From Actinokineospora baliensis (lineage in GTDB: Bacteria > Actinomycetota > Actinomycetes > Mycobacteriales > Pseudonocardiaceae), in NCBI RefSeq assembly GCF_016907695.1, contig NZ_JAFBCK010000001.1, forward strand, positions 5,010,001 to 5,074,000: a DNA stretch of 64,000 bases, given 5' to 3'. Position 1 is the stretch's first letter. The number at the start of each line of letters is the position of its first letter. Shown here piece by piece: positions 29,656-63,671 of this stretch. A model generated the notes under the pieces. That model saw nothing but the letters and a program-made list of their open reading frames with translations, was not told the origin of the DNA and made no database searches. A program made the translations under genes and the position numbers.

Positions 29656-29685
29656 TTGCTTCTACACGTCCGTGGAAGATAGGCT
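29656..29685 (+). promoter_or_regulatory. Candidate promoter of the siderophore operon
   Basis: TTGCTT (29656-29661) and TAGGCT (29680-29685) are separated by 18 bases and could serve as -35 and -10 hexamers of a vegetative promoter. The -10 lies inside the iron box, a typical repression geometry. Confidence 0.45.
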
Positions 29686-29697
29686 AGGCTAACCTCA
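29679..29697. promoter_or_regulatory. Iron box (IdeR/DmdR-type operator)
   Basis: The 19 bases ATAGGCTAGGCTAACCTCA match the DmdR/IdeR consensus TTAGGTTAGGCTAACCTAA at 16 positions, including the core TAGGCTAACCT. It is placed just upstream of the mbtH-led operon, so iron-loaded IdeR/DmdR should repress the whole pathway. The match is by eye against the remembered consensus. Confidence 0.85.
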
Positions 29698-29890
29698 GGC
29701 GATGGGCGTCGCCCGACGACCGGGTTCCGGTCGCGGGGAACGGCGGCCACCTCTTGACGCGCCACCGCGGTCGCACTGTCCCGTTCGGGCGACCCGGTGA
29801 GCGCGACCACCCCCAAGGTGCCAGCCGTGCGCGTTGCCGCGCCCGGCCGATGCCGCCTGCCCGTAGCCAGGAACGCCGAGGAGTGCGCCG
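29698..29890 (+). other. Long leader between iron box and mbtH-like gene
   Basis: About 190 bases without a convincing gene. A 6-bp hairpin GACCGG-GTT-CCGGTC lies at 29718-29732. The leader may be an untranslated region of the siderophore mRNA or hold a second promoter. Confidence 0.35.
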
Positions 29891-30112
29891 ATGTCCACCA
29901 ACCCGTTCGACGACGAGAACGGGACGTTCCTCGTCCTGGTCAACGCCGAGCAGCAGCACTCGCTGTGGCCGGTGTTCGCCGACGTCCCCGCGGGCTGGAC
30001 GGCCGTGTACGGGCCTGCCGACCGCCCGTCCTGTGTGGACTTCGTGGAGCGGGTCTGGACCGACATGCGGCCCGCGAGTCTGGTCGAGCGCATGGCGTCG
30101 GAGCAGGTGTAG
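29891..30112 (+). CDS. MbtH-like protein
   Basis: 73 aa; ATG 29891 is preceded by GAGGAG. The MbtH signature is intact: NPFDDENGTFLVLVNAE, QHSLWPVFADVPAGW and SCVDFVERVWTDMRP, with the conserved Trp residues. MbtH proteins bind adenylation domains and are needed for their solubility and activity. It is the first gene of the operon; its stop TAG overlaps the GTG of the salicylate synthase by one base. Confidence 0.97.
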   Translation: MSTNPFDDENGTFLVLVNAEQQHSLWPVFADVPAGWTAVYGPADRPSCVDFVERVWTDMRPASLVERMASEQV

Positions 30113-31398
30113 TGACCGCCACCGCCCGAGCGGTGGCCGATCCGCTGCTGGTCGCCGCCGCCGTGGCGCGCCGCGCCGAACCCCCGTTCGTGCTCTACGA
30201 ACGCGGCGGCCGGTGGGTGCTCGCGGCGGGAGCGCGGGCCCGGCTGCGGATGGACGGCATCGGCATCACCTGGACCACGCCCACCGGGCGCCGGTCGGTC
30301 CCGCTGGGGCCCGACCCGCTGGGCCAGGTCGCCGAGTTGCTCGCCACCTCGGGCCTGCCCACGTGGCGCGCCTACGGTTGGGCCGCGTTCGAGCTGGCCC
30401 GCCTGCTGCACCTCGGCCGAGCCGACGGTCCCCTGCTCGACCTGGTGATCCCCACCTACGAGCTGGTGATCGGCCCGGACGGCGTGCACGAGCACGGCAC
30501 GGTCCCCGAGGGCCTGCGCGAGGTCGACGACCGGCCGTGGCCCGCGCCCACCGGCGACCTGGTCGACCCGGAGGCGCCGGACGCGGCCTACTCGGCCGCC
30601 GTGGTCGAGACCGTGCGCGCCATCCAGGCGGGCGGTCCGGACAAGGTCATCCTGTCCCGCGTCGTGCCGGTGCCCGTCGAGATCGACTTCCCGGCCACCT
30701 ACGTCGCCGGGCGGCGCGGCAACACCCCGGCCCGGTCGTTCCTGCTCGACCTGGGCGGGCTGCGCGCCACCGGGTTCAGCCCCGAGACCGTGGTCGAGGT
30801 GGACGCGGCCGGTCGGGTCCGCACGCGGCCGCTGGCCGGGACCCGGGCCCTCATCGGGGATCCCGCGCGGGACCTGGCGACCCGGCGGGAACTGCTGGCC
30901 GACCCGAAGGAGATCTTCGAGCACGCGATTTCGGTGAAGCTCGCCCAGGACGAGTTGGCCGGGGTGTGCGCACCGGAGTCGGTCCGGGTTGAGGACTTCA
31001 TGACCGTCAGCGAGCGCGGCAGCGTCCAGCACCTGGCGTCCCAGGTGCGCGGTGACCTGGCCCCCGGCCGCACGGCTTGGGACGCGTTCGCCGCGCTTTT
31101 CCCCGCCATCACCGCGTCCGGCATCCCCAAGGCGGCGGCTGTGGAAGCCATCGCAAAGCACGAGCCGCGCCGGGGCCTCTACAGCGGCGCGGTGCTGGCC
31201 GTCGACTCCGACGGCGGGTTCGACGCGGCCCTGGTGCTGCGCACCGTGTTCAGCTCGGGCGGCCGGACGTGGTTGCGCGCCGGGGCCGGGATCATCGCAC
31301 TGTCCACACCGGAGCGCGAGTGGACGGAGACCTGCGAGAAGTTGCGCAGCATCTCCAGGTTCCTGGTGCCCGCCGAATCGAAGGGAACGGGCAGGTGA
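30112..31398 (+). CDS. Salicylate synthase (MbtI/Irp9 type)
   Basis: 428 aa from GTG 30112. A chorismate-binding enzyme that converts chorismate through isochorismate to salicylate and pyruvate in one polypeptide. Visible motifs: DKVILSR near residue 178, TRPLAGTRAL (catalytic Thr/Gly loop), the block EIFEHAISVKLAQDEL, the motif SERGSVQHLASQVRGDL and ASGIPKAAA, which is the salicylate-synthase form of the C-terminal signature, then GLYSGAV and WLRAGAGI. Length fits MbtI/YbtS (about 430-450). It supplies the aryl cap for the NRPS and is coupled to the next gene by a GTGA overlap. Confidence 0.93.
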   Translation: MTATARAVADPLLVAAAVARRAEPPFVLYERGGRWVLAAGARARLRMDGIGITWTTPTGRRSVPLGPDPLGQVAELLATSGLPTWRAYGWAAFELARLLHLGRADGPLLDLVIPTYELVIGPDGVHEHGTVPEGLREVDDRPWPAPTGDLVDPEAPDAAYSAAVVETVRAIQAGGPDKVILSRVVPVPVEIDFPATYVAGRRGNTPARSFLLDLGGLRATGFSPETVVEVDAAGRVRTRPLAGTRALIGDPARDLATRRELLADPKEIFEHAISVKLAQDELAGVCAPESVRVEDFMTVSERGSVQHLASQVRGDLAPGRTAWDAFAALFPAITASGIPKAAAVEAIAKHEPRRGLYSGAVLAVDSDGGFDAALVLRTVFSSGGRTWLRAGAGIIALSTPEREWTETCEKLRSISRFLVPAESKGTGR

Positions 31399-34300
31399 GC
31401 GCCGTGGACTACGACGCGCTGCTGGTCGCGGTCGCCGAGCTGACCGAGGAGGAGCCCGAGGACATCACCGCGGGCACGAACCTGTTCGAGCTGGGGCTCG
31501 ACTCGATCGCGCTGATGAAGCTCGTCGGCGGGTGGCGCCGGGCAGGGGTCGCGGTCGACTTCGCCGAACTGGCCGCGAACCCCACGCTCGGGGCGTGGGC
31601 CGCGCTGCTGGCCGAGCGGGTCGCGCCGACGCAAGCCGTGGAGAGCGCGCCCGAGTCCGATGAGGACGGTCCGTTCTCGCTCGCGGTGCTGCAGCACGCC
31701 TACTGGATCGGCCGCGCCCCTGGCCAGCGCCTCGGGGGAGTCGCGGCGCACCTCTACACCGAGTTCGACGGCGCCGACGTGGACCCGGCACGGCTCACGG
31801 CCGCCGTCGAGCGGGTGATCGCCCGGCACGACATGCTGCGGGTCGTCCTGTCCGACAACGGGGACCAGCGGATCGCGCCGGAATCCGGGTGGCGGGGCCT
31901 GACCGTGCACGACCTGCGCGCGCACCCTGACCCCGAGGCCGAACTGGCCGCCATCCGCGACGCGAACTCCCACCAGTTGCTCGACATCGAGCACGGCGAG
32001 GTCTTCGCCACCGCCCTGAGCCTGCTCCCCAGCGGCCGCACCCGCCTGCACGTCGATGTCGACATGGTCGCCGCGGACGCGGTCAGCTACCGCGTCCTGC
32101 TCGCCGACATCGCCCGCTTCTACCAAGGCGACACCGACGACACCCAGCTCGACTACAGCTACCGCCGCTACCGGCGAGCAAGCCAGGACGACGAGAAGGC
32201 CGCCCGCTGGTGGCGCGACCGCCTCGCCACCCTCCCCGGCGCCCCCGAGCTGCCCATGGCCGCCCAGGAGTCCGACCGGCCGCGCGTGACCCGTCGCGCC
32301 GTGGTGCTCCCACCGGCCGAACGCGCCACCCTCGCCGAGCGCGCGAAGGAGCGCGGGGTGACCGTGGCGATGGCCGTGGCGACCGCGTTCGCCGAGGTCG
32401 TGGGCCGCTGGAGCGCCAGCGAGCGGTTCCTGCTCAACGTGCCGATGTTCGACCGGGAGCCCGTGCACCCGGATGTCGCCAACCTGGTCGGCGACTTCAC
32501 CAGCTCGATCCTGCTCGCGGTCGACCTGACCGAACCCGCGACCTTCGTGGAACGAGCCCGCCAGGTGCAGCGCCGGGCGCACGAGGACGCCGCGCACGCC
32601 GGGTACAGCGGTGTGGAGGTGCTGCGTGACCTGACCCGCCTGCACGGCGAGCAGGTCCTGGCACCGGTCGTGTTCACCAGCGCGCTGAACCTGGGCGAGC
32701 TGTTCGACGCCCGGGTGCGGGCCAGTTTCGGCGCACCCGTGTGGATCATCTCGCAAGGCCCGCAGGTGCTGCTCGACGCCCAGGTGACCGAGCTCGACGG
32801 CGGCCTGTTGGTCAACTGGGACTGCCGCGACGACGAGGTCGCCGACGGCGTGCTCGACGCCATGTACACCGCGTTCGCCGACCTGGTCCACCTGCTCGCC
32901 GCCGACCAGACCGCGTGGGACGCGCCGGTTCCGGCGACGTTGCCCGAGGCCCAGCAGGTGCGCCGGGACCGCGCCAACGACACGGTTCTCGTGCGCCAGC
33001 GCGGCCTGCTGCACGAGGGCGTGTTCGCCCGCGCCGCCGAGGACCCGCACGCGCCCGCGATCGTCGGCGAGCAGGTGATCTCCTACGGGCAGCTCACCGA
33101 CCGGGCTTTGCGGGTCGCGGGCGAGCTGGCCCGTCTCGGGGTCACGCCCGGCGACACCGTCGCGGTGCGGCTGCCGAAGGGACCGGAGCAGGTCATCGCG
33201 GTGCTGGGTGTGCTGGCCGCCGGTGGCACGTACGTGCCGATCGGGGTCGAGCAGCCGCAGGCCAGGGTGGACCGGATCGTCGCGTTGGCCAAGCCCCGCA
33301 CGGTGATCACCGAGCTCCCGGACGGGGACCCGCTGCCCGAGCCGGTCTTCGTCGACCCCGCGCGAGCGGCGTACATCCTGTTCACCTCCGGCTCCACCGG
33401 TGAGCCCAAGGGCGTCGAGGTCCCGCACCAGGCCGCCATGGCCACCATCGACGACCTCATCGCCCGGTTCGACATCGGCGCTGGCGACCGCACCCTGGCG
33501 CTGTCCGCGCTCGACTTCGACCTGTCCGTGTTCGACCTGTTCGCCCCGCTGTCGGTGGGTGGAGCGGCGGTCCCAGTGACCGACGACCGCCGCGACGCCG
33601 CCGCCTGGGGTGCGCTGGTCGCCGCGCACCAGGTGACGATCGTCAACTGCGTGCCCGCGCTGCTGGACATGCTGCTGGCCTCCGGTGCCGACTGCTCGCC
33701 GCTGCGGCTGGTGCTGCTCGGCGGCGACTGGGTGGGCGTCGATCTGCCCGGACGCCTCGCCGACGCGGCCCCGGGGTGCCGGTTCGTGGCACTCGGCGGG
33801 ACGACCGAGACGGCGATCCACTCCACGGTGTGCGAGGTGTCTGGTCCGGTGCCGCAGGACTGGCGCTCGGTGCCGTACGGAACGCCGTTGGGCGGCGTGC
33901 GGCTTCGGGTGGTCGACCAGCTCGGGCGGGACGCGCCGGACTGGGTGCCGGGTGAGCTGTGGATCGGCGGCGCCGGTGTCGCGGCGGGCTACCGGGGCGA
34001 TCCCCAACGCACGGCCGACCGGTTCGTGATCAGCGACGGAGTGCGGTGGTACCGCACGGGCGATCTGGCCCGTTACCGCGGCGACGGGACCGTGGAGTTC
34101 CTCGGCAGGCGCGATCACCAGGTGAAGGTCAGGGGCTACCGGGTCGAACTGGGCGAGGTCGAGGCCGCGCTGCGGGCGAACCCGTCGATCACCGCGGCCA
34201 TCGCCGTCGCCACCGCTGGCGGCTTGGGGGCGGGTGTCGTCGTCGATGGTCCGTTCGACGCCGATGCCGTGATGGCCGCCGCGCGGGAGTTGTTGCCCGC

Positions 34301-34748
34301 CCACATGGTGCCGGACGTCGTAGTCGCGATCGACGCCGTTCCGCTGTCGGCCAACGGGAAGGTCGACCGTGGCGCGGTTCGCACCTTGGTGGGTGCACCC
34401 GCTGCGGCCGGTGGGCCACCGCCGCGCACCGCGCTGGAGCGGGTCGTGGCGCTCGCGTGGCGGGAGGTGCTGGAGATCGACTTGGTCGGCGTCCACGACG
34501 AGTTCTTCCGCGTCGGCGGCGACTCGGTCCTCGCGACCGCGGTCATCGGGCACCTGCGCACCGCCCTGGACACCACAGAAGTCTCGGTCCGCGCCTTGTT
34601 CGGTGCGCCGACCGTCGAGGGCTTCGCCGCCGCGCTGGCCAGGGGGCAGCGCGAACCGGGGCGCCTCGAAGCGGTGGCCGAGCTGTTCTGGGAGATCGAC
34701 GGGTTGTCCGACGACGAGGTCGCGGGCGAGTGGGCGGAGGCGCGATGA
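31395..34748 (+). CDS. NRPS: aryl carrier-Cy-A-PCP (MbtB-like)
   Basis: 1117 aa from GTG 31395. Residues 1-75 form an aryl carrier domain with ELGLDS (phosphopantetheine Ser37). About 95-510 is a cyclization domain: the Cy motif DVDMVAADAVS replaces HHxxxDG. About 530-1000 is the adenylation domain ([30 protein letters not shown]), followed by a PCP with FFRVGGDS (about 1040). The specificity code read by eye is DLFNLGLIHK, close to the known Cys codes (DLYNLSLIWK), so salicyl-Cys is probably cyclized to a hydroxyphenyl-thiazoline; Ser/Thr would give an oxazoline. The salicylate-AMP ligase gene overlaps at the 3' end (ATGA). Confidence 0.92.
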   Translation: MSAVDYDALLVAVAELTEEEPEDITAGTNLFELGLDSIALMKLVGGWRRAGVAVDFAELAANPTLGAWAALLAERVAPTQAVESAPESDEDGPFSLAVLQHAYWIGRAPGQRLGGVAAHLYTEFDGADVDPARLTAAVERVIARHDMLRVVLSDNGDQRIAPESGWRGLTVHDLRAHPDPEAELAAIRDANSHQLLDIEHGEVFATALSLLPSGRTRLHVDVDMVAADAVSYRVLLADIARFYQGDTDDTQLDYSYRRYRRASQDDEKAARWWRDRLATLPGAPELPMAAQESDRPRVTRRAVVLPPAERATLAERAKERGVTVAMAVATAFAEVVGRWSASERFLLNVPMFDREPVHPDVANLVGDFTSSILLAVDLTEPATFVERARQVQRRAHEDAAHAGYSGVEVLRDLTRLHGEQVLAPVVFTSALNLGELFDARVRASFGAPVWIISQGPQVLLDAQVTELDGGLLVNWDCRDDEVADGVLDAMYTAFADLVHLLAADQTAWDAPVPATLPEAQQVRRDRANDTVLVRQRGLLHEGVFARAAEDPHAPAIVGEQVISYGQLTDRALRVAGELARLGVTPGDTVAVRLPKGPEQVIAVLGVLAAGGTYVPIGVEQPQARVDRIVALAKPRTVITELPDGDPLPEPVFVDPARAAYILFTSGSTGEPKGVEVPHQAAMATIDDLIARFDIGAGDRTLALSALDFDLSVFDLFAPLSVGGAAVPVTDDRRDAAAWGALVAAHQVTIVNCVPALLDMLLASGADCSPLRLVLLGGDWVGVDLPGRLADAAPGCRFVALGGTTETAIHSTVCEVSGPVPQDWRSVPYGTPLGGVRLRVVDQLGRDAPDWVPGELWIGGAGVAAGYRGDPQRTADRFVISDGVRWYRTGDLARYRGDGTVEFLGRRDHQVKVRGYRVELGEVEAALRANPSITAAIAVATAGGLGAGVVVDGPFDADAVMAAARELLPAHMVPDVVVAIDAVPLSANGKVDRGAVRTLVGAPAAAGGPPPRTALERVVALAWREVLEIDLVGVHDEFFRVGGDSVLATAVIGHLRTALDTTEVSVRALFGAPTVEGFAAALARGQREPGRLEAVAELFWEIDGLSDDEVAGEWAEAR

Positions 34749-36331
34749 GCGGACTCATCGACGGTGCGGTCGGCTGGCCGGAGGAGTTCGCCGCCGTCTA
34801 CCGGGAACGCGGCTACTGGCGGGGGGACACCCTCGGCGGGCTGCTGCGATCGTGGGCCGAGCGCTCCGGCGACGACATCGCCGTCGTCTCGGGCGACGAG
34901 CGGATCAGCTACCAGGAACTGGACCACAGGGCGGACGTCCTGGCAGCGGGACTGCTCAACCTGGGCATTGCCCGCGACGCCCGACTCGTGGTCCAGCTCC
35001 CGAACGTGCCTGAGTTCGTGGTGCTGCTGTTCGCCCTGGCCAGGATCGGCGCGGTACCGGTGATGGCGCTGCCCGCGCACCGGCGCGCGGAGATCGCGCA
35101 CCTCGTGGAGCTCTCCGACGCCGTCGGGTACGTCATCCCCGATGTGTTCCAAGGGTTCGACCACCGCACTCTGGCCGCGGAGCTCGACATCGAGCACGTT
35201 CTCGTGGTCGGCGACCCGGGTAAGCACACCGCGCTGGCGGCGGTAGCGGGCGAACCCCGCGAGCTCCCGCCGGTGGACCCGGCAGCGGTCGCCGTCCTGC
35301 TCATCTCCGGTGGCACCACCGGACGTCCCAAACTGATCCCGCGCACGCACGACGACTACGCCTACAACGCGCGCGCCAGCGCCGAGGTCTGCGAGCTCAC
35401 CAAGGCCGACCGCTACTTGGTGGCGTTGCCCGTCGCGCACAACTTTCCGCTCGCCTGCCCGGGAGTGCTGGGGATCCTCGGGGTCGGCGGCACTGCGGTG
35501 ATGGCTCCCGCGCCCAGCCCGGACGTCGCTTTCCCCTTGATCGATCGCGAAGGCGTGACCGTGTCCGCACTGGTCCCGCCGATGGCCCGGATGTGGGTCG
35601 ACGCCACCGAGTGGTCCACAGAGGACCTATCGACCCTGCGGCTGCTCGAGGTCGGCGGCGCCAAGATGGACCCTGACCTCGCCCGCGCGGTGCCGCCCGC
35701 CCTCGGATGCGCCGTCCAGCAGGTGTTCGGCATGGCCGAAGGTCTGCTCAACTACACGCGCGCCGACGACTCGGCGGACCTGGTGGAGCACACCCAAGGC
35801 AGGCCGCTCAGCCCCGACGACGAGGTCCGTGTGGTCGACGCCGAAGGCCACGACGTCGCGCCGGGCGAGATCGGGGAGCTGCTGACCCGAGGCCCCTACA
35901 CCCTGCGCGGCTACTACCGCGCCGAGCAGTACAACGCGACGGCGTTCACCCCGGACGGCTTCTACCGCAGCGGCGACCTGGTGCGGCAGCTGCCCAGCGG
36001 CCACCTCGTGGTCGAGGGCCGGATCAAGGACGTGATCAACCGCGGCGGCGAGAAGGTGCCCGCGGGCGAGCTGGAGGACCTGCTGCTGGCCCACCCCGCC
36101 GTCGCGCAGGCCGCCGCCATCGGGCTGCCGGACGACACGCTCGGCGAACTGGTGTGCGCGGTGATCGTCGCCGCCGGGACCCCGCCCAAGCTCAAGCAGC
36201 TGCGGGCGCACCTCGCCGAACAGGGCCTGGCCAGGTACAAGCAGCCCGACCGGCTCGTCGTGCTCGACGAGTTGCCGCTCACCGCCGTCGGCAAGATCAG
36301 CAAACGCGACCTCGTCGCCCGGCTCGGCTGA
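34745..36331 (+). CDS. Salicylate-AMP ligase (MbtA/YbtE/EntE family)
   Basis: 528 aa from ATG 34745 (ATGA overlap). A stand-alone aryl-acid adenylating enzyme: [16 protein letters not shown] (P-loop), [16 protein letters not shown] and GKISKRDL (A10 Lys). It activates the aryl acid and loads it on the carrier domain of the preceding NRPS. Two pocket positions indicate salicylate rather than 2,3-dihydroxybenzoate: NFPLACPG (Cys where DhbE has Ser240) and EGLLNYT (Leu where DhbE has Val337). This agrees with the salicylate synthase in the operon and the absence of DHB genes. Confidence 0.95.
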
Positions 36332-36412: not shown

Positions 36413-39400
36413 GTGAGCACCGACACCCCCGGCCCCGACCGCGTCACCCTGCGCCGCGACCTGCTGCGCAGGCGGCTGGCCGAACGGGGCCTCGCCGAGA
36501 CGCCCGCCGCGGTCGACGGCGGGACGCGCGGCGAGCACCCGCTCTCGCCCGGTCAGCGCCGGATGTGGTCGCTGCAGCAGCTGAACCCCGCCTCGGTCGG
36601 CTACAACATCCGCATCGCGCTCGACCTGGTGGGCGCGGTCGACCACGAGCGGCTGCACGCGGCGGTCCGGGAGGTCGTCGCCCGCCACAACATCCTGCGC
36701 ACCACCTACCGCATGGGCGCCGACGGCGAAGTCACCCAGGTCGTGCACAGCGAGCTGCCGCCCGCGCTCGACCACCACGAGGCGACTGACGCGGCAAGGG
36801 TGGAAGAGCTGTGCCGGTCGGTGTCGGCGAAGGCGTTCGACCTCGCGGTGGACTCGCCGTTGCGGGTCAGGACGATCGCGACGGCACCTGACGCGCTCAC
36901 GGTGGTTGTGGTCGCGCACCACATCGCTTGGGACGACGGCACCTCCGCGGTCTTCTTCGGCGAGTTGATGACCGCCTACCAGGGCGGCACCCTGCCGCCC
37001 GCACGCCAGTTCACCGATCTCGTCCCCACGACCCAGTCCTCCGCCGTCGACCACTGGGTCCAGGCGTTGTCCCCGCTGCCGGACCCGGTCGAGCTGCCGA
37101 TCCTCAGCGCCGCGGGCCCCAGCGCGGGCGGCCACGACCAGTCCAGGCCGCTCATCCCCGGCGCCGCGGGGCGGGTCCGCGAGCTGGCCCGACGCGAAGG
37201 CGCGTCCACGTTCATGGTCATGTTGGCCGCGACCTCGGCGCTGCTGCACCGCTACACCGGCGCTGACGACCTGCTGATCGGCGCGCCCGTGGTCAACCGC
37301 GACCTCGACGGCGGCGACGCGGTCATCGGCTACCTCGGCAACACGATCGCACTGCGCATGCGCGTCGACGCGGCCGACACCTTCACCTCGCTGCTCGCCC
37401 AAGCCCGGCAGGTCTGCCTCGCCGGGTACGCGCACCAGGACGCGGACCTCGACGACGTCGTGCGCGCGGTCGACCCGGACCGGACCCGCGGTGGCACCAG
37501 CCTGTTCAACGTCGTGCTGTCGTTGCGCACCCCCGTGCTGGAGCCGTTCCGCGCCGCTGGGCTGCGCGCGACCCGCAGGCACGTCCCCGGCGACGACGCC
37601 CGGTTCGACCTGACCCTCGCCGTGGAGACCGACGGCGACGACCTGACCGTCGAGGCCAACCACCCCGCCGCCGATGGCGCGGTCGACCTGGTCGCGGGCC
37701 TGCTCGCCCACTTCGACCGGCTGCTCGACCGCGCACTGTCCACACCGGACGTCCCGGTTGGCGACCTCGACCTGCACGACGGCACCGAGCCCGACTGGAA
37801 CGACACCATTGTCCCCGCCACGACCACGCTGCTGCCGGACTGGTTCACCACGCAGGCCCAGCGCACGCCCGACGCGCTCGCGGTGCTGGCGGACGGCGAG
37901 CGGATCACCTACCGCGACCTCGACGAGCGCTCGAACCGCCTAGCCCGCGTCCTGATCGCGCGCGGCATCGGCCCCGAGAGCACTGTCGCGCTGTCCATCC
38001 CGCGCTCGGTGGCCATGGTCGTGGCCGTGCTCGCGGTGGCCAAGGCGGGCGCGGCGTACGTGCCGGTCGACCCCGAGTACCCGGCTGACCGCGTGCGGCT
38101 CATGCTCGAGGACTCCGCGCCCGGCCTGGTGCTGACTGTCACCGGTGCACTGCCCGACGGCCCAGGTCGGCTCCTGCTCGACACCCTTGACCTGTCCGGC
38201 GACTCCGGCGCGCCCGTCAGCGACACCGACCGCGTCTCGCCGCTGGACCCCGACCACGCCGCCTACGTCATCTACACCTCCGGGTCGACCGGTAAACCCA
38301 AGGGTGTCGTCGTATCCCACCGCGCGCTGAGCAACCACCTCGCGTGGTCGCTGCGCCGCTTCAAGGGGCTCACCGGGCACACCCTGCTGCACTCGTCGAT
38401 CTCCTTCGACTTCACCGTCACCCCGCTGCTGGGCACGCTGGTGGCCGGTGGAGCCGTGGAGCTGTGCGCGGACTCGCCGGACGCCATCGCCGAAGCCGTG
38501 GGCGCGGCGACCTTCCTCAAGATCACCCCGAGTCACCTGCCGTTGCTGGCCTCCGTGCGGCTCGCCGAGCACGGCACCCTGGTGATCGCAGGCGAGGCGC
38601 TGCACGGGGCGGCGCTGGCGGGCTGGACCGCGCCAGCCGGGGTCGATGTGATCAACGAGTACGGCCCGACCGAGACCACCGTCGGCTGCCTGCTGCACGA
38701 CGTCGTGGCCCCCGTCGCCGAAGGTGCGGTGCCGATCGGTTCGCCGGTGGAGAACACGACCTGCGTCGTGCTCGACGCACGGCTACGGCCGGTCCCGGTC
38801 GGGGTCGTCGGTGAGCTCTACGTCGGTGGCGTCCAGGTCGCCCGCGGCTACCTGGGCAGGCCGGGGCTGACCGCGGCCAGGTTCGTGGCCGACCCGTGGG
38901 GCGCGCCGGGGGCCCGCCTCTACCGCACCGGCGACCGCGTGCGACGGCTCTCGTCGGGGGCGCTGCAGTTCCTCGGCCGGGTCGACGACCAGGTCAAGAT
39001 CCGCGGCTTCCGGGTCGAACTCGGCGAGGTGGAAGCGGCGCTGCTGCGGCACCCGGCGGTCGACCAAGCCGTGGTGACCGTGCGCGAACGCAGCCTGGCC
39101 GGGTACGTCGTGGGGTCGGCCGACCCGGCGTCGGTGCGCGAGTTCATCGCCGCCGAACTGCCGGAGCACATGGTCCCGGCCACGATCACCGTCCTGGACG
39201 CCTTGCCGTTGTCGCCCTCGGGCAAGGTCGACCGGCGCGCGTTGCCCGAACCCCGGGTCGCCGCGACCGAGTCCCGCGGACCCGCCAACGACGTCGAGCG
39301 CACGCTGGCCGACCTGTTCGCCGAGGTCCTCGGCCACGACGCGGTCGGTGTCGACGACTCGTTCTTCGAACTCGGCGGCGACAGCATCGTGTCCATCCGG

Positions 39401-55884: not shown

Positions 55885-58800
55885 GCCGGTCCAACATCGA
55901 GGAAGTCCTGCCTCTTGCGCCGCTGCAGGAAGGCTTGCTGTTCCACGCCCTCTTAGACGAATCCGACGATGTCTACACCGTGCGAACTGTGGTGGACCTC
56001 GACGGCGACGTTGACTCTGAACGCTTGCGAGGAGCTGCTGAAGCCTTGGTTCAGCGGCACGCAGTGCTAAGAACCGCGTTCACGCAAAGTGCCACCGGGG
56101 CTGTCCAGGTCGTTCTTCGGCGCGTGCGCGTGCCGTGGAGCGAGGTCGACCTGCGCACGACCGCGCAGCCACCACACGAGCCGTTCGTGCTCGACAAGCC
56201 ACCGTTGATCCGGTTCGTGCTCGCTCGCACTGGCGACACCGCCTATAGGCTCATCATCACCAGCCACCACATCCTGCTCGACGGCTGGTCCGGCCCGCTG
56301 CTGCTGCGCGACCTGTTCGCCCTCTATAGCGGAACCTCGCTACCACGCGTGAGGCCATACCGGGACTTCCTGGCGTGGTTGTCCAAGCGGGACAGAGCGG
56401 CTGGCCTCAAGGCATGGGCCGACCTCCTCGACGGAGCAACACCGACCCTGACGGCTCTACCTGCCACAGGGAGGCCGCAGAGGCTGGAACTGGCTGAACC
56501 GGAGGACTTGAGCGCGGCAGTCACCGCACTGGCACGCCGCGCGGGCGTCACGGTCAGCACCGTCCTGCACGCCGCCTGGGGCATCGTCGTGGGCAGCCTC
56601 ACCGGACGCGATGACGTCGTCTTCGGCGCCACGGTGTCCGGTAGGCCCGCCGACCTGCCCGGCGTCGACACCATGGTCGGGCTGTTCATCAACACCATCC
56701 CCGTCCGGGTCAGGCTCAACCCCTGGACTGAGATCCCCGACCTGCTGCGGCAACTCCACCGCGCGCAGACCTCCGTGCTCGACCACCACCACCTCAACCT
56801 CGGCGAGATCCAAGCCGCGGTCGGCGTGGGGGAACTGTTCGACACCCTTGTCGTCGTCGAGACCTACCCCGTGGACGACACCGCGATCGACACGGTCCGC
56901 GAAGCGATGGACGTCCGCGCCACCGGCGTCGACACCGACGACGCCACCCACTACCCGCTCACCCTCACCGCCGAACCCGGCGCCCGGCTCGCCCTGGCAC
57001 TGGAACACCGCCTCGACCCCGACCACGCCACGACCATCGGCGACCTGCTGATCTCCACCCTGCGGGACCTGACCCAGGTCAGTTGTGCGGGCGAGGTCAA
57101 CCGCGTGCCCGCAGCACCCCGCGCCCGGGTCGAGCCGACCACGGCGACTCTGCTGGACCTGTTCGCCGAACACGCCGACTCCGACGGGCCCGCAGTCGTC
57201 TGCGGGCAGGTGTCGCTGACGTTCCGCGAGGTGGACGCGATGTCGACCGACCTCGCGGGATACCTCGTGTCCCAGGGGGTCGGGCAGGAAGACCGGGTCG
57301 CGGTCGTGCTGCCCCGCTCGGTCGACGTCGTCGTGTCGATGCTGGCCGCCTGGAAGGCGGGTGCGGTCGTCGTGCCCGTCGATCCGGCCTATCCGGCGGA
57401 CCGGATCACCGCGACCCTCGCTGCCGCCCGGCCTGTCGTGGTCATCGACGAGACGACCCCCCGAGAGTCATCGCAGCACCGGCTGCCCGGCCCTGTGGGT
57501 CCCGATTCCGCCGCGTACATCGTCTTCACGTCGGGCTCGACAGGACAACCGAAGGGCGTCGTCGCTACACACGGGGGAGTGGTCAACCTCGCGCTCGCGC
57601 ACCGCACCGCCTTCATCGACCAACCCCGCCGGTTCCGCGCCCTCAACCTGCTCTCGTTCGCCTTCGACGGTTCCGTGGACCCGCTGCTCTGGCTCTTCGC
57701 CGGTCACACCGTGCACGTCCTGCCTGACGACCTCATGGGCGACTCGCCCGGCATCGTCGACTACTGCGCACGCCACCGCATCGACTTCGTGGACGCGCCG
57801 CCGTCCTTGCTCGAGCTCCTCATCGCGGACGGCCTCCTCGACACCGGGCTGTCCATCCTCGCGACCGGAGCCGAAGCCGTCAGCCCGCGCCTATGGGACG
57901 AACTGGCCGCGTTCGACGGCGTGGCCCTGAACCTCTACGGACCCACCGAGTGCACGGTCGACGCCACCTGGACCGTCGTCACCCCCGGCCTACCGCACAT
58001 CGGCGCGCCTATAGCCGGGGCCAGTGCCGTAGTGCTCGACTCCGCCCTGCGCCCAGTCGCGGTCGGCGTCCCCGGTGAGCTCTATGTGGCAGGTGCCGGT
58101 GTCGCGCGCGGATACGACAACCGGCCCGGGGAAACCGCGACCCGGTTCGTCGCGGATCCCTATGGCAGCGGAACCCGCCTCTATCGCACGGGTGACCTGG
58201 TTCGCCGGACCAAGACAGGCACCTTGGAGTTCCTCGGCCGCGCAGACGACCAGGTCAAGATCCGCGGCCACCGCGTCGAGCCCGGCGAGGTCGAGGCAGC
58301 CCTCTTAGCCCACCCGGCCGTCCGCCAAGCCGCTGTCATCGCGCGGACCGACGCGGGTGTCACCCGACTCGTCGGCTACGTGACCCCTGCCGACATCGAC
58401 GCAGCCGCTGTTCGCGCGACCCTCGCCAGGACGCTGCCTGACCACCTCGTGCCTGCGGCGGTCGTCGCCCTCGACACCTTCCCCGCCACCCCCAACGGCA
58501 AACTCGACCGCCGTGCGCTGCCCGCACCCCAGTACGCGTCCACGACCACACGTCCGGCCCGCACCCGCGCTGAACGCGTCCTGTGCGACCTCTACGCCGA
58601 GCTCCTCGGCCTCCCCGAAGTCGGCGTTGACGACTCGTTCTTCGCCCTTGGCGGCCACTCGCTGCTCGCGGCCCGCCTCATCTCCCGCGTCCGCGCCGAG
58701 CTAGGCACCGCACCGGGACTGCGCGCCGTGTTCGATGCCCCCAGCCCGGCCGCGCTCGCGGCCCGCCTCGACGGCCCCGAACTGGACACCGCCTACGAAC

Positions 58801-59549
58801 CGCTGCTCCCGCTGAGGCCTATAGGCACGGCTGCACCCTTGTTCTGCGTACACCCGGGCTTGGGGCTGAGCTGGTCTTACGCCGGGCTCCTCGCCCACAT
58901 CGACCCGGACATCCCCGTGTACGGCCTGCAGGCCACCGGGTTCACAGGGCCCGTCACCGTCGACGACATCGCGGACCACTACGCGGCCTTGATCACTGCT
59001 GCCGCCCCCACAGGGCCAGTCCGCCTGCTCGGCTGGTCGCTCGGTGCCGTCCTCGCCCACGCCGTCGCCCGCAGACTCGACCGGGTCACCGCACTGGTCC
59101 TGCTCGACGGCTACCCAGGCGGCGACGAGCCCGAAGAAGAGTCCGGCGGTGGAGCCCGCTTCCTGCACGAATGGCTCCAGCGAGCGGGCTACCTCGTCGA
59201 CGACATCGACCCGGACACGATGACCCCTGACCGCGCCGCCGAACTCGCGGACACAGGCCTCTTAGCCGGCCTCGGCGCTGCCCGCATCGGCGCACTAGCC
59301 GCCAGCATGCGCGCAGTGGCCAACGTCGACACCACCGTCAAACCCGGCCTCTATGTCGGCGACGCCCTCTTGGTGCGAGCAACCCCTGGTGGGGACCCCA
59401 CTTTGTGGGAGCCCTACATCGCGGGGCGGCTCACCACCCACACGGTCGACGTCGAGCACGAGGCACTCATGACTTCCCACGCGCTGCGCGTGGTCGGCCC
59501 GCTCGTCGCGGCCGCGTTGAGAACCCCCCACCCAGGTGGGGACAGATGA
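55881..59549 (+). CDS. Terminal NRPS: C-A-PCP-thioesterase
   Basis: 1222 aa from GTG 55881 (GTGA overlap). DCL-type C domain ([27 protein letters not shown]), matching the E domain at the end of the preceding protein. A domain (about 420-880) has [22 protein letters not shown] and NGKLDRRAL; the code by eye is DGDDLTLVDK, nearly the same as modules 2 and 3 of the giant NRPS. PCP with ALGGHS (about 925). The type I thioesterase (about 975-1215) has [11 protein letters not shown] and [10 protein letters not shown] (catalytic Ser) with a C-terminal VEHEALM (His). It releases the chain by hydrolysis or cyclisation. TTA codons at 55953, 58305 and 59262. Confidence 0.95.
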
Positions 59550-59578: not shown

Positions 59579-60628
59579 ATGGTCGACACCTCCCCGCGCC
59601 CCGCCCGGCCGTTCTCCCGCAGGCTCTTCCTGAGCGGCTCGGCAGCGGGCGCGCTGACCCTGGGCCTCACCGCCTGCGGATCCAGCGAAACCCCCACCCC
59701 CGCCCCGGCTCCCACCAGCGGCGCCGCGGTCGGCGGGTTCCCGCTGACCATCGAGGGCGCCGAGGGCAAGACCGTCATCCCCAGCCAGCCCAGCCGGGTG
59801 CTCACCGTCGGCTTCATGCGCGACGTCGACGAGGCCGTCTCGCTCGGCGTCGTCCCCATCGCCATCACCCCGCAGACCAACTTCGACTCCGGCCTGGCGC
59901 CCTGGGTCGAGGCCAAGCTGGGCGGGGCCGCGAAGCCGCAGCAGATCGAGGTCGAGGACAACCTGCCGTTCGAGAAGATCACCGAGCTCGCTCCCGACCT
60001 GATCCTGGCCACCGACAGCTACACCCTCGCCGACGACTTCGCCAACCTCACGGCGATCGCCCCCACCCTGTCCTACCAGGACGACGTGGCCGAGGACACC
60101 TGGCAGACCAGGGCCAAGCGCATCGGCGCCGCCCTGGGCAAGGCCGACGCCGCCGGGAAGGCCGTCGCCGACGTCGAGTCGAAGATCGCCGCGGCCAAGG
60201 ACGGCAACAAGGCCACCCTCGACGGCAAGACCTTCACCTTCAGCCTGCTCAACGCCGAGGGCCAGCTCGCCACCGTCATCCTGCCGACCGACGCCTCCGC
60301 CCAGTTCCTGTCCCAGCTCGGCCTCAAGCTCTCCGACCAGGTCACCAGCCTGCCGCAGGCCGGTCCCGCTGGCCGCGCGGTGGTCGCCCAGGAGAACACC
60401 AAGCTGCTCGACGCCGACGTCGTGCTGTTCTCCTTCCGCAGCGAGGACGAGCGCAAGCAGGTCGAGGGCGACCGGCTGTTCCAGGCCCTGCCCGCGGTCA
60501 AGCGTGGCGCCTACGTCGCACTGGAGGTCGGCGAGGCGCTGTCGCTGGCGTTCCCGTCCACCCTGAGCATCCCGTTCGCGCTCGAGAAGATCGTGCCCAA
60601 GGTCGTCGCCGCAGCGGCCAAGGCCTGA
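59579..60628 (+). CDS. Siderophore-binding lipoprotein (FecB/FepB family)
   Basis: 349 aa from ATG 59579; ATG 59546 forms an ATGA overlap with the NRPS stop and would add 11 residues. The N-terminus has a twin-arginine-like SRRLFLSG, a hydrophobic stretch and the lipobox LTACG, so it is a Tat- or Sec-exported lipoprotein. The mature part is a class III periplasmic-binding fold (PSRVLTVGFMRDVDEAVSLG, ELAPDLILATDSYTLAD, SIPFALEKIVPKV). It should capture the ferri-siderophore and hand it to the FecCD permeases downstream. Confidence 0.93.
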   Translation: MVDTSPRPARPFSRRLFLSGSAAGALTLGLTACGSSETPTPAPAPTSGAAVGGFPLTIEGAEGKTVIPSQPSRVLTVGFMRDVDEAVSLGVVPIAITPQTNFDSGLAPWVEAKLGGAAKPQQIEVEDNLPFEKITELAPDLILATDSYTLADDFANLTAIAPTLSYQDDVAEDTWQTRAKRIGAALGKADAAGKAVADVESKIAAAKDGNKATLDGKTFTFSLLNAEGQLATVILPTDASAQFLSQLGLKLSDQVTSLPQAGPAGRAVVAQENTKLLDADVVLFSFRSEDERKQVEGDRLFQALPAVKRGAYVALEVGEALSLAFPSTLSIPFALEKIVPKVVAAAAKA

Positions 60629-60659: not shown

Positions 60660-61574
60660 ATGACGCTGGCCCACACGATCCAGGGTGAAGGACCCGTAGT
60701 CGACAGGATCGCGGCTGACCGCGACGGGCTAAGAGCGAAGCTGGTCGAGCACGGCGCACTACTGCTGCGCGGCTTCGAGATCGGCGGCGCAGACGGCCTC
60801 GCTGACGCGGTGCGTGCGTTCTCAGGGGAACCGCTCACCTACACCGAGCAGTCCTCTCCGCGCGACGTGATCAAGGGAAAGGTCTACACATCGACCTCTT
60901 ACCCCGCGCAGGCCGAGATCCCCCTACACACCGAGATGTCCTACCAAGCGGTCTGGCCGCTGACGCTGTTCTTCCACTGCGTCGAACCGCCTCTTACCGA
61001 GGGTGCCACACCGCTTGCCTCTATCCGCGAGGTCTACGAGCGCATAGACCCGGATGTGCGGGCCGAGTTCGAGCAGCGCCGTTGGATGGTGGTGCGCAAC
61101 TACGGCGAAGACGTCGGCCTACGCTGGTGGACCGCGTTCGGCACGGAGGACCGCGCGCAGGTCGAGAAGCAGTGCGCTGCGGGTGGGCTCACCGCCGAGT
61201 GGGTGGGGTCCGACGGCCTACGCACTAGAGCGGTGCGCGACGCGGTCCACCACCACCCCGTCACGGGGCTGCCGGTGTGGTTCAACCACATCGTCATCTT
61301 CCATGAGAGCAGCCTGCCCGCCGAGGTCCGCGAAGGCATCGCCGAGATCTATGGGCCTGACGGGTTCCCCAACAACTCGTACTACGGCGACGGCAGCGTC
61401 ATCCCCGACGACGTAGTGGCCCACCTGCGCCAGTGCTACCGGGCCGCGTCGACCCGGTTCGACTACCAGCGCGACGATCTGTTGGTAGTGGACAACATGT
61501 CAGCCGCGCACGGGCGGGAGCCGTTCACCGGTCCGCGCAAGATCGCTGTAGCCATGGCGGAATCGTCCGCGTGA
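60660..61574 (+). CDS. TauD/TfdA-family (SyrP-like) Fe(II)/2-oxoglutarate dioxygenase
   Basis: 304 aa from ATG 60660, preceded by AAGAGGAG. Metal-binding motif IPLHTEMSY (HxE form, as in SyrP) and distal His in SAAHGREPF, followed by R for 2-oxoglutarate in GPRKIAVAM. The block GKVYTSTSYPAQ is typical of the SyrP subgroup, which beta-hydroxylates an amino acid tethered to a carrier protein (Asp in syringomycin). In this operon it may make a beta-hydroxy-Asn/Asp or hydroxylate one of the unassigned residues, providing an iron ligand. Which residue is hydroxylated cannot be told from sequence. Confidence 0.88.
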   Translation: MTLAHTIQGEGPVVDRIAADRDGLRAKLVEHGALLLRGFEIGGADGLADAVRAFSGEPLTYTEQSSPRDVIKGKVYTSTSYPAQAEIPLHTEMSYQAVWPLTLFFHCVEPPLTEGATPLASIREVYERIDPDVRAEFEQRRWMVVRNYGEDVGLRWWTAFGTEDRAQVEKQCAAGGLTAEWVGSDGLRTRAVRDAVHHHPVTGLPVWFNHIVIFHESSLPAEVREGIAEIYGPDGFPNNSYYGDGSVIPDDVVAHLRQCYRAASTRFDYQRDDLLVVDNMSAAHGREPFTGPRKIAVAMAESSA

Positions 61575-61629
61575 AGGGGAGTTGCTAGCCTTGCCCGGTA
61601 ACACCGCGCAGAGCGACGAGGGGCCACTT

Positions 61630-62643
61630 GTGCAAGAAAGGCGTCCTCGCAGCGTAAGTGTGCGCCTCTTAGGGTTGATCGGTGCTCTTGTTGCGCTCGC
61701 GGCGGTGTGTGTGTTGAGCATGGTCGTCGGGGCCGAGAACATCGACGTGGGAACCGCGTGGCGCCTACTGTGGCACGACGACGGCAGCGAGATCGCCTAC
61801 ATCGTCCGCGAGTTGCGGTTCCCACGCACAGTCATCGGCCTGTTCGTCGGTGTCGCCCTCGGTCTCGCCGGCGCTCTCATGCAGGCGCTGACGCGGAACC
61901 CGTTGGCCGACCCCGGCCTGCTCGGCGTGGAGATCGGTGCCTCTACCGCGGTGGTGGTCGCGATCTCCGTCTTCGGCATCACCGCGCCCAGCGGCTACGT
62001 GTGGTTCGCGCTGCTGGGCGCGGCGGCCGCCTCCATCGCCGTCTACGCACTAGGCGCCGCGGGCCGCGCCGCCACCCCGGACCGCATGGTCCTCGCCGGG
62101 GCGGCCCTCACCGCGGCCCTCAACGCCATCGTCGGCATCATCCTGGTGGTCGACGCCGCGACCTTCGACCGGTTCCGTTTCTGGGTCATCGGCTCCCTCG
62201 CGGGCCGCGGCGTGGACGTGTTCCTGGAGGTCGCCCCGTTCATCGGAGCGGGCGTACTGGTCGCCCTCTGCCTCGGCCGCCCCCTCAACGCCCTCGCGCT
62301 AGGCGACGAAACCGGCCAAGCCCTCGGCGTCCGCGTCAACCAAGTCCGCCTCACCGGCGCGATAGCCGTAACCCTCCTGTGCGGCGCAGCCACAGCCGCC
62401 ATCGGCCCTGTTGTGTTCGTCGGCCTAGCGGTCCCACACATCGCCCGGCTCATCACCGGCCCCGACCACCGCTGGGTCCTGCCCTATGCGGCAGTCCTCG
62501 CAGGCATCCTCCTGGTCGGCTCTGACGTCCTAGGCAGAGTGCTTGGCGCCCCAGGCGAACTACAAGTAGGAATCGTCACCGCGTTGTTGGGAGCTCCTGT
62601 CTTCATCGCCCTAGCCCGTCGCCGCCGAATGGCCCACCTATGA
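61630..62643 (+). CDS. FecCD-family siderophore ABC permease 1
   Basis: 337 aa from GTG 61630, which has GAGGGG six bases upstream; TTG 61591 or 61582 would lengthen the N-terminus. About ten transmembrane helices; family motifs RELRFPRTVIGLFVGVALG, GALMQALTRNPLADPGLLGV, a segment GSLAGR, and GPVVFVGLAVPHIARLITG (the EAA-like ATPase contact) are clear. It forms a heterodimer with the next gene to import the ferri-siderophore. One TTA codon at 61669. Coupled to the next gene by ATGA. Confidence 0.93.
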   Translation: MQERRPRSVSVRLLGLIGALVALAAVCVLSMVVGAENIDVGTAWRLLWHDDGSEIAYIVRELRFPRTVIGLFVGVALGLAGALMQALTRNPLADPGLLGVEIGASTAVVVAISVFGITAPSGYVWFALLGAAAASIAVYALGAAGRAATPDRMVLAGAALTAALNAIVGIILVVDAATFDRFRFWVIGSLAGRGVDVFLEVAPFIGAGVLVALCLGRPLNALALGDETGQALGVRVNQVRLTGAIAVTLLCGAATAAIGPVVFVGLAVPHIARLITGPDHRWVLPYAAVLAGILLVGSDVLGRVLGAPGELQVGIVTALLGAPVFIALARRRRMAHL

Positions 62644-63671
62644 ACGCCCTCGTGATGCGAGTGGGCCCGTTGTCGGTGCGGCTGCACCGTCGGCCGCTGC
62701 TCGTTGGTGCTGTCCTGTTTGTGGCGTTGGTGGTCGCGGCTGCCCTGAGCCTCACCACCGGCGACTACCCGGCGACCGTGTCCGACATCCTGCGGACCCT
62801 GTTCGGCCAAGGCCCCCCTGGCCTGGAACTCGTGCTGAACCGCTTCCGCCTGCCCCGACTCCTCGTCGCCATCGGCGTAGGTGCCGCGCTGGGCGCCGCA
62901 GGTGCGATCTTCCAGAGCGTGTCCCGCAACCCCCTGGGCAGCCCCGACGTCATCGGCTTCACCACCGGGTCCGCCACTGGCGCCATCCTCGTCCTCCTGA
63001 TCTACCGCGACGCCCAGATCAGCGTCGCCGCAGGCGCTGTCGTCGGCGGCCTGGTCTCCGCGGTCGCCGTCTACCTCCTCGCCTACCGCCGAGGCGTCCA
63101 AGGCTTCCGCCTGGTCCTGGTAGGCATCGGCATCAGCTCAATCCTCGCCGCCGTCAACTCGTACATGCTCAGCCGCGCCTCCATCCAGGAAGCCCGCCTG
63201 GCCCAACTGTGGCAACTAGGCAGCCTCAACGGCCGCACCTGGCAACAGGTCACCCCCCTCTGGACCTCTCTAGCCGTACTGCTCCCCCTGACCCTGCTCC
63301 TCTCCCGCCGCATGCCCATCCTCGCCATGGGCGACCCCACCGCGGCCGCCTTAGGCATCCCCCCAGAACGAACCCGCCTATCCCTAATCCTCACCGGCGT
63401 AGCCCTAACCGCCGTAGCCACCGCAGCGGCAGGCCCCATCAGCTTCATAGCCCTAGCCGCCCCCCAAATCGCGGCCCGCCTAACCCGCTCCCCAACCCCC
63501 GGCATCCTCCCCGCCACCCTCACCGGCGCCGTGCTGCTGGTAACAGCAGACCTAGCAGCCCAACGCTTGATCCCCTCCCTCCAACTCCCCGTAGGCCTAA
63601 CCACCGGCGCCACCGGCGGCGCCTACCTCATCTGGCTCCTGGCCACACAGCTGCGCAAGTCCTCTACTTAA
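62640..63671 (+). CDS. FecCD-family siderophore ABC permease 2
   Basis: 343 aa from ATG 62640. The same family as its neighbour: NRFRLPRLLVAIGVGAALG, GAIFQSVSRNPLGSPDVIG, WQLGSLNGRTW and GPISFIALAAPQIAARLTR. About ten helices. One TTA codon at 63351. No ATPase gene follows; the convergent pentapeptide gene overlaps its 3' end by eight bases, so the operon ends here. Confidence 0.93.
   Translation: MNALVMRVGPLSVRLHRRPLLVGAVLFVALVVAAALSLTTGDYPATVSDILRTLFGQGPPGLELVLNRFRLPRLLVAIGVGAALGAAGAIFQSVSRNPLGSPDVIGFTTGSATGAILVLLIYRDAQISVAAGAVVGGLVSAVAVYLLAYRRGVQGFRLVLVGIGISSILAAVNSYMLSRASIQEARLAQLWQLGSLNGRTWQQVTPLWTSLAVLLPLTLLLSRRMPILAMGDPTAAALGIPPERTRLSLILTGVALTAVATAAAGPISFIALAAPQIAARLTRSPTPGILPATLTGAVLLVTADLAAQRLIPSLQLPVGLTTGATGGAYLIWLLATQLRKSST

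What the first reader, a model, noticed from the sequence alone, without database searches (positions are those of the whole stretch)
29679..63671. Salicylate-capped, seven-module siderophore assembly line with mixed ligand chemistry
Seen: domain order and codes read by eye give salicylate, Cys-like (Cy domain), Asn-like with E, Thr (exact code) with E, X, X, N-hydroxyornithine-like with E, X, TE, plus a SyrP-like hydroxylase. Inference: a peptide with a phenolic thiazoline, a hydroxamate and possibly a beta-hydroxy acid ligand, i.e. a hexadentate siderophore. The combination of D-Asn, D-Thr and three unassigned like residues in one chain does not match any siderophore I recall.
Basis: partly seen in the sequence, partly recalled or inferred. 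Interest (0 to 1): 0.75.

Follow-up and report, generated by a model that had tools for sequence, protein, structure and literature searches.

The report
Iron-regulated three-ligand siderophore assembly line
This is a large enzyme assembly line in an Actinokineospora soil bacterium that most likely builds an iron-scavenging peptide with three different kinds of iron-binding group; the line is real and recurs in other bacteria, but its first ring is predicted to be an oxazoline made from serine, not the cysteine-derived thiazoline first proposed.

Summary
At 29679-63671 lies an unbroken cluster: iron box, MbtH, salicylate synthase, aryl-AMP ligase, seven NRPS modules ending in a thioesterase, SyrP-like TauD oxygenase, Fe-siderophore binding protein and permeases. 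The module-1 code (DLFNLGLIH) is not a Cys code; it is that of serine-to-phenyloxazoline modules in madurastatin-type loci. Module 6 (DINYWGGIG) fits N5-formyl-N5-hydroxyornithine; a formyltransferase/ornithine N-monooxygenase cassette lies 3.2 Mb away with two of the genome's ten iron boxes, and its homologues sit beside the same line in Dactylosporangium. I read the line in 12 loci. The Asn-like module, Thr and TauD are in 12 of 12, the hydroxamate module in 11 of 12; the three X modules (acidic pockets, probably basic residues) are missing from three lines and look like spacers. Best reading: a hexadentate siderophore using phenol-oxazoline, beta-hydroxy-Asn (or Asp) and formyl-hydroxamate. 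Kineochelins, the only paper listed for Actinokineospora with siderophore and salicylate, have another module order. MIBiG could not be searched and the frankobactin paper is not held. Residue identities are code-based predictions; no product is shown.

The parts
29679..29697 (+). Iron box (IdeR/DmdR1 type, 3 mismatches to the recalled consensus)
   Evidence: 10 sites in the whole genome, 0 for the reversed pattern
29891..30112 (+). MbtH-like protein
   Evidence: PF03621
30133..31398 (+). Salicylate synthase (true start probably 30109 or 30112, read by eye)
   Evidence: TIGR03494 450 bits, cut-off 325
31395..34748 (+). NRPS 1: ArCP-Cy-A-T; code DLFNLGLIH, predicted Ser closed to an oxazoline
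34745..36331 (+). Aryl-acid AMP ligase, taken as salicylate-specific from its neighbours
   Evidence: TIGR02275 652 bits, below its 2,3-dihydroxybenzoate cut-off of 723.55
36413..40867 (+). NRPS 2: C-A-T-E; code DFTKVAEVG, Asn-like, D
40852..45390 (+). NRPS 3 module 1 (approximate bounds): C-A-T-E; code DFWNIGMVH, Thr, D
45394..48400 (+). NRPS 3 module 2 (approximate): C-A-T; code DGDDAGLVD, X
48430..51450 (+). NRPS 3 module 3 (approximate): C-A-T; code DADDAGFVD, X
51454..55884 (+). NRPS 3 module 4 (approximate start): C-A-T-E; code DINYWGGIG, predicted D-formyl-hydroxyornithine
55881..59549 (+). NRPS 4: C-A-T-TE; code DGDDAGLVD, X; release
59579..60628 (+). Siderophore-binding protein
   Evidence: PF01497
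60660..61574 (+). SyrP-like TauD oxygenase, predicted hydroxylase of the module-2 residue
   Evidence: PF02668; HxE, distal H and Arg in 120 of 120 listed relatives
61582..62643 (+). FecCD permease 1
   Evidence: PF01032
62640..63671 (+). FecCD permease 2
   Evidence: NF007759 345 bits, below its cut-off of 422

Best explanation
An iron-regulated NRPS line that makes a mixed-ligand siderophore. Predicted chain: salicyl-[Ser oxazoline]-D-(beta-hydroxy)Asn-D-Thr-L-X-L-X-D-(N5-formyl-N5-hydroxy)Orn-L-X, released by the thioesterase as a linear acid or macrolactone; X is probably a basic amino acid (Orn, Lys or Arg). Salicylate is made from chorismate, activated, loaded on the ArCP and cyclised with Ser by the Cy domain. 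The TauD enzyme hydroxylates the module-2 residue. A cassette at G000:C1:1862170-1865341 (formyltransferase and ornithine N-monooxygenase) supplies formyl-hydroxyornithine in trans. Iron is held by phenol-oxazoline, the beta-hydroxy residue and the formyl-hydroxamate; X residues are spacers or charge carriers. Shown by sequence: genes, domains, codes, iron boxes, conservation. Inferred: residue identities, hydroxylation site, ligand roles, product.
For: Domains and codes. Oxazoline from Ser: DLFNLGLIH is the code in Actinomadura salicylate loci that also carry Gly, beta-Ala and hydroxyornithine codes, the order of the madurastatins, whose Ser becomes a phenyloxazoline (passages); in the kasichelin study such an A domain was called Cys although the product is an oxazoline (passages). 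Formyl-hydroxyornithine: homologues of the remote cassette lie beside the line in Dactylosporangium (74% and 60%) and a 68% formyltransferase lies in the G066 locus; the cassette has 2 of 10 genomic iron boxes. Residue 2 as the hydroxylated ligand: 7 of 80 salicylate-synthase loci show the DFTKVAEVG code and all 7 of those genomes have a TauD at 69% or more, against 0 of 21 genomes without that code in the locus (best 63%). G066, G119 and S. inusitatus lack X but keep DFTKVAEVG and TauD. DCL domains follow each E domain.
Against: No product, expression or enzyme data. Code-based residues can be wrong, X above all. The cassette may serve mainly the second iron-regulated NRPS line, which has two DINYWGGIG modules. 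Frankia gtarii has the DINYWGGIG module but no formyltransferase above 34% or monooxygenase above 34% in its draft; G119 shows neither in the 40 kb searched. S. inusitatus lacks the hydroxamate module. A TauD 90% like this one sits in a different NRPS locus of A. diospyrosa. Asn is not a usual ligand residue; Asp would be. I did not search for the permease ATPase.
Confidence: 0.65

Rival explanations
1. Module 2 loads Asp and the TauD makes classical beta-hydroxy-Asp, a known hydroxy-carboxylate ligand; the rest as in the best explanation.
For: Beta-hydroxy-Asp is an established siderophore ligand made by related Fe/2-oxoglutarate enzymes (passages). Three bidentate groups would then be classical. 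The code differs from both textbook codes.
Against: Position 322 is E, as in recalled Asn codes; recalled Asp codes have H. Two of five loci of the next TauD group also carry Asn-like codes, DLTKVGEVG and DFTKVGEVG.
Confidence: 0.25
2. One reading: module 1 loads Cys and the product carries a phenolic thiazoline.
For: A Cy domain is present; a published prediction for a similar module also said Cys (passages).
Against: The code differs from the 9 Cys-type codes in the survey and equals that of madurastatin-type loci, which make an oxazoline.
Confidence: 0.05
3. The TauD acts on Thr or X, or serves another pathway; the third iron ligand, if any, is a different group.
For: A TauD 90% identical sits in a different NRPS locus of A. 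diospyrosa; 3 of 5 loci of the 60-65% relatives show no Asn-like code in the stretch fetched. Thr is also in 12 of 12 lines.
Against: X is missing from three lines that keep the TauD. Two Pseudonocardia lines have Thr directly after module 1 but only a TauD of 34-39%.
Confidence: 0.2
4. The product is an already described metallophore or its close relative (frankobactin is the main candidate), and its role may be metal exclusion, for example copper, rather than iron supply.
For: Frankia genomes carry this line, in G012 without the salicylate part in the 52 kb read. The frankobactin cluster is called 'bipartite' (passages), and frankobactin A1 is reported to keep copper out (passages).
Against: From recall, frankobactin has five residues after its oxazoline, not six. 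Frankia sp. EI5c, another strain, has a salicylate line with a Gly module and no TauD match. The iron box and the Fe-siderophore transport genes point to iron.
Confidence: 0.15

Closest known systems
Madurastatin lines (Actinomadura)
   Same: Salicylate synthase; Cy-A module with the same code DLFNLGLIH making a phenyloxazoline from Ser; hydroxyornithine hydroxamates
   Different: Rest is Gly, beta-Ala and two hydroxyornithines, no E domains and no terminal TE reported (passages); here Asn-like, Thr, X, formyl-hydroxyornithine, three E domains and a TE
Kineochelin cluster (kin, Actinokineospora sp. UV203)
   Same: Same genus; salicylate cap; oxazoline; formyl-hydroxyornithine (section read)
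   Different: Thr methyl-oxazoline, Gly, formyl-hydroxyornithine, D-Ser, D-Ser, hydroxyornithine; six modules; ArCP and TE on a separate protein
Amychelin, gobichelin, cahuitamycin
   Same: Named as phenolate-oxazoline mixed-ligand siderophores (passages)
   Different: Not compared sequence by sequence here; a hydroxylated Asn/Asp residue is not part of them as I recall
SyrP-type and siderophore beta-hydroxylases (TBH_Asp, IBH_Asp)
   Same: TauD family, HxE and distal H; two listed relatives are named SyrP-like
   Different: Published profiles could not be run; module 2 carries an Asn-like code and no extra interface C domain
Frankobactin (Frankia sp. CH37)
   Same: Actinobacterial metallophore with a bipartite NRPS cluster (passages); phenyloxazoline from recall
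   Different: Not compared: paper not held

Membership tests
Salicyl-oxazoline/hydroxamate mixed-ligand NRPS siderophore line | Salicylate synthase, aryl-AMP ligase, ArCP-Cy start | tested here: met
Salicyl-oxazoline/hydroxamate mixed-ligand NRPS siderophore line | First A domain loads Ser or Thr (oxazoline), not Cys | tested here: met
   By code comparison only:
Salicyl-oxazoline/hydroxamate mixed-ligand NRPS siderophore line | Hydroxamate residue with its N-monooxygenase | tested here: met
   Code DINYWGGIG; genes 3.2 Mb away, beside the line in Dactylosporangium
Salicyl-oxazoline/hydroxamate mixed-ligand NRPS siderophore line | Iron regulation and Fe-siderophore transport genes | tested here: met
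   Box by pattern; transport genes; expression not tested
Salicyl-oxazoline/hydroxamate mixed-ligand NRPS siderophore line | Product binds Fe(III) | not testable with these tools
   No product data
Kineochelin line | Module order Thr, Gly, formyl-hydroxyornithine, Ser, Ser, hydroxyornithine | tested here: not met
Madurastatin line | Ser, Gly, beta-Ala, hydroxyornithine, hydroxyornithine | tested here: not met
Beta-hydroxy-Asp siderophores | TauD enzyme with HxE...H in the cluster | tested here: met
Beta-hydroxy-Asp siderophores | A domain with an Asp code | tested here: inconclusive
   DFTKVAEVG reads Asn-like
Beta-hydroxy-Asp siderophores | Match to the published TBH_Asp or IBH_Asp profiles | not testable with these tools
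   Profiles not in the libraries used
Frankobactin cluster | Same module order as BGC0002409/BGC0002410 | not testable with these tools
   Record and paper not held

The most novel reading that the evidence does not exclude
A widespread actinobacterial siderophore family that joins three different chelator types in one short peptide: salicyl-oxazoline, beta-hydroxy-asparagine set by its own TauD clade (HxEM signature), and a formyl-hydroxamate whose genes can lie elsewhere, with optional basic spacer modules gained or lost between the ligand modules. A survey of 2,489 complete NRP-metallophore regions counted three chelator pathways only in 42 regions, each with the pyoverdine chromophore (section read), so this would be a non-pyoverdine three-chelator class that such rules miss, because the hydroxamate genes can lie elsewhere and this hydroxylase may fall outside the rule's families (not tested).
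Probability: 0.4. Interest if true: 0.65.

Novelty: new variant of a known kind. Interest (0 to 1): 0.5.

Why it matters
If right, the line adds a third, hydroxylated-residue ligand to the salicyl-oxazoline/hydroxamate siderophores and shows by comparison which modules are ligands and which are spacers. It gives a testable case of one iron-regulated hydroxamate cassette serving two NRPS lines in trans, and a sequence signature (HxEM) by which genome mining could find related lines. It also warns that the DLFNLGLIH code should not be read as Cys.

Tried and rejected
Cys/thiazoline at module 1 (rejected). Kineochelin as the product (rejected). Hand-read X codes (one column off at 299/301; corrected). 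Pattern reading of codes across loci mis-set positions 278-301 and is used only for the other positions. Naming X from solved structures (one search did the same for module 2): no close relative of telling substrate among the sequences listed. A text search for six code strings found no paper. The 60-65% TauD relatives as proof of an Asn substrate: only 2 of 5 loci carry an Asn-like code. Plasmid search with NRPS 1: 2489 records matched, all below 60% identity, not followed. Two other N-monooxygenase genes were not taken as the supplier: the one at C1:4439495 lies with aminotransferase and NRPS genes and no iron box in its 19 kb; the one at C1:7285010 has an iron box nearby and lies beside a gene that I read by eye as a desferrioxamine-type synthetase. 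A fourth, partial match at C1:2739931 was not followed. Two structure jobs and three fold searches were not used.

What I saw of papers: PMC13238742 abstract, passages and two sections; PMC12971057 passages and one section; PMC12305651, PMC10951976, PMC10779116, PMC12701797, PMC11534348 and PMC11877528 passages; PMC7729416 part 1 of 2 of the text; others only in search listings. Recalled, from no call: meanings of the specificity codes, the PheA position numbering, the iron-box consensus, the DCL/LCL names, SyrP and frankobactin chemistry, and G012 as Frankia alni ACN14a by its length (not used as a result).
Full report
WHAT IS THERE. The window is part of a 7,681,387-bp single-contig genome that is grouped in one genus with the A. 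terrae and A. diospyrosa genomes (same match places as). The closest salicylate synthase listed is from A. terrae (91%). From 29679 there is an iron box, then genes in one direction: MbtH, salicylate synthase, NRPS 1, aryl-AMP ligase, NRPS 2, NRPS 3 (5010 aa), NRPS 4, a binding protein, a TauD oxygenase and two FecCD permeases. I did not search for the permease ATPase. The four NRPS frames are unbroken and carry active-site motifs: ArCP LGLDSI, Cy DxxxxDxxS, GGDS in the T domains of the three E modules, GGHS in those of the three X modules, three E domains, thioesterase GWSLG.

C DOMAINS. Pairwise identity sorts the ten C-type domains into one Cy, one that stands alone (NRPS 2, 30% or less to the others), three E (39-47% alike), a group of three (48-52%) and a group of two (55%). 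Each member of the group of three directly follows an E domain, so I call it DCL and the pair LCL. The D/L pattern is then consistent: residues 2, 3 and 6 are D; residues 4, 5 and 7 are L.

CODES. All A domains were aligned to the Thr domain: DLFNLGLIH, DFTKVAEVG, DFWNIGMVH, DGDDAGLVD, DADDAGFVD, DINYWGGIG, DGDDAGLVD. Position 517 was assumed, not read. D235 is kept in all seven, which fits alpha-amino acids. Meanings of codes are recalled.

MODULE 1 IS SER RATHER THAN CYS. In 80 salicylate-synthase loci (of 102 confirmed) I extracted 130 A-domain segments: DLFNLGLIH 25 times, DMFNLGLIH and DLFNIGLIH once each, against 9 Cys-type codes (DLYNLSLIW 5, DLWNLSLIW 2, DLFNLSLIW 1, DLWNMSLIW 1). A Cy label was printed for the eight DLFNLGLIH-type rows shown; the Cys-type rows shown had none, but my Cy pattern is crude. 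Actinomadura loci carry this code with Gly, beta-Ala and hydroxyornithine codes, the order of the madurastatins, whose Ser is closed to a phenyloxazoline (passages). In the kasichelin study the Cy-linked A domain was predicted as Cys, yet the product is an oxazoline (passages).

MODULE 6 AND THE REMOTE CASSETTE. The genome has three near-full-length ornithine/lysine N-monooxygenase matches and one partial, none near the cluster. One, at C1:1864004-1865341, lies with a formyltransferase gene at C1:1862170-1863117 and an unknown gene between them. A genome-wide iron-box scan found 10 sites, and none for the reversed pattern: one at this cluster and two at the cassette (C1:1861564 and 1863952). 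In Dactylosporangium sp. AC04546 the homologues (74% and 60%) lie about 1 kb and 2 kb upstream of the MbtH gene of the same line, with an iron box between them. In G066 a 68% formyltransferase lies in the locus. Against: the cassette may be shared with, or mainly serve, a second NRPS line at C1:3454486-3496507, with iron boxes at C1:3453333, 3501030 and 3502752 and two DINYWGGIG modules. F. gtarii has the DINYWGGIG module, yet its best formyltransferase and monooxygenase matches are 31-34% (a fragmented draft). In G119 neither was found in the 40 kb searched.

RELATED LINES. I read the line in 12 loci: window, A. terrae, A. diospyrosa, Actinosynnema sp. ALI-1.44, Actinokineospora sp. NBRC 105648, G035 (contig length of Alloactinosynnema sp. 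L-07), Dactylosporangium sp. AC04546, S. inusitatus, Frankia G012, G066 and G119, and Frankia gtarii in pieces. DFTKVAEVG is in 12 of 12 and a Thr code in 12 of 12. DINYWGGIG is in 11 of 12 (S. inusitatus has DVWHLSLVD and DVWILGAVN instead). The module-1 code is in 11 of 12 (none found in 52 kb of G012). TauD is in 12 of 12 (in F. gtarii on another contig, with the binding protein). X-type A domains: three in seven of the 11 lines; two in Dactylosporangium, which also shows a C-T stretch with no A domain found; none in S. inusitatus, G066 and G119. X in F. gtarii was not fully read. So the salicyl-oxazoline, the DFTK residue with its TauD, Thr and the formyl-hydroxamate are the constant parts, while X comes and goes. 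That is why I place the three bidentate ligands on cap, residue 2 and residue 6. S. inusitatus, without the hydroxamate module, is the exception.

RESIDUE 2 AND THE TAUD. By position 322 (E) the code reads Asn; Asp is not excluded. Co-occurrence: 7 of 80 loci show DFTKVAEVG, and all 7 genomes have a TauD of 69-96%. Of the other genomes, 21 were searched (4, 17) and none has one above 63%. The relatives listed are the best 120 of 2453; H, E, distal H and Arg are kept in 120 of 120. The first 40 by rank read LH[TN]EMSY; of the other 80, 79 have N and one T in place of M. The node joining P0001-P0039 holds 39 leaves (support 0.91; midpoint-rooted quick tree). All 12 lines have M and an iron box within 4 mismatches; five loci of 60-65% relatives have N and no box in the 40-60 kb read (0 reversed-pattern hits in the 10 loci tested). 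Only 2 of those 5 loci carry an Asn-like code. The exception to the pattern is A. diospyrosa C8: an M-type TauD (90%) with no box, beside other NRPS genes. In the family 5 of 150 sampled genomes, this one included, have a TauD at E <= 1e-140; in the genus 5 of 16, this one included, have one at 78% or more.

X. All X codes read keep D239, D278 and D331. By charge matching (recalled: K239 in Glu codes, E239 in Lys codes) a basic side chain is most likely: Orn, Lys or Arg. This is the weakest residue call. The second line of this genome has three DADDGGFVD modules, so X is not special to this cluster.

KNOWN OR NEW. Kineochelins, from another Actinokineospora, have a different order (section read). 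Paper searches for Actinokineospora, siderophore and salicylate (one paper: kineochelins), for hydroxyasparagine with siderophore and for related terms listed no title or abstract that I recognised as this product; most listed papers were not opened. Subscription papers are mostly not held, and MIBiG could not be searched. The eLife survey reports three chelator types in only 42 of 2,489 regions, each with the pyoverdine chromophore (section read), and mentions unexplored hydroxylase clades (passages). On that basis I rate the line a new variant of a known kind, with frankobactin the main unread check.

Noticed in passing
G000:C1:3453333-3507286 (L125-L127): A second large NRPS line with iron boxes nearby, codes for Gly, Ser, formyl-hydroxyornithine (twice), Thr and three DADDGGFVD modules, and genes that look like dihydroxybenzoate supply at its end.
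   Followed up: partly
28251-29650: A divergent pair just upstream of the cluster: a BlaI-like repressor (by likeness to two homologues that match PF03965) and an M48 peptidase. Homologues of the peptidase lie beside the line in A. terrae, A. diospyrosa, ALI-1.44, NBRC 105648 and Dactylosporangium, and beside the A. auranticolor remnant.
   Followed up: partly
L004:8114-11940: A. auranticolor keeps MbtH, salicylate synthase and a 227-aa frame that begins like the ArCP of NRPS 1; no NRPS A domain was found in the 21 kb read: a remnant of the line.
   Followed up: partly
L098/L099 (G002:C8:430000-464999): A. diospyrosa has a second TauD (90%) next to another NRPS and genes that look by eye like diaminopropionate synthesis, followed by genes like those downstream of this window's cluster.
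   Followed up: no
44015-44248: A tandem repeat (102-bp unit, 2.3 copies) lengthens the E domain of the Thr module: 250 residues from the T to the HH motif, against 182 in A. terrae and 171-194 in five others measured.
   Followed up: partly
48352-63671: Third-position GC falls from 0.92-0.94 in the first half of the cluster to 0.79-0.92 in the later parts, with 0.97 in the binding-protein gene.
   Followed up: no
G012:C1:4505001-4557000 (L112, L113, L135): In one Frankia genome modules 2-7 and TauD are present, but no salicylate synthase or module 1 was found in the 52 kb read: a split line.
   Followed up: partly
L082 (G000:C1:4439495-4449721): Another N-monooxygenase gene with an aminotransferase, genes that look by eye like homoserine acyltransferase and aspartate kinase, and a one-module NRPS with TE; no iron box in the stretch.
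   Followed up: no
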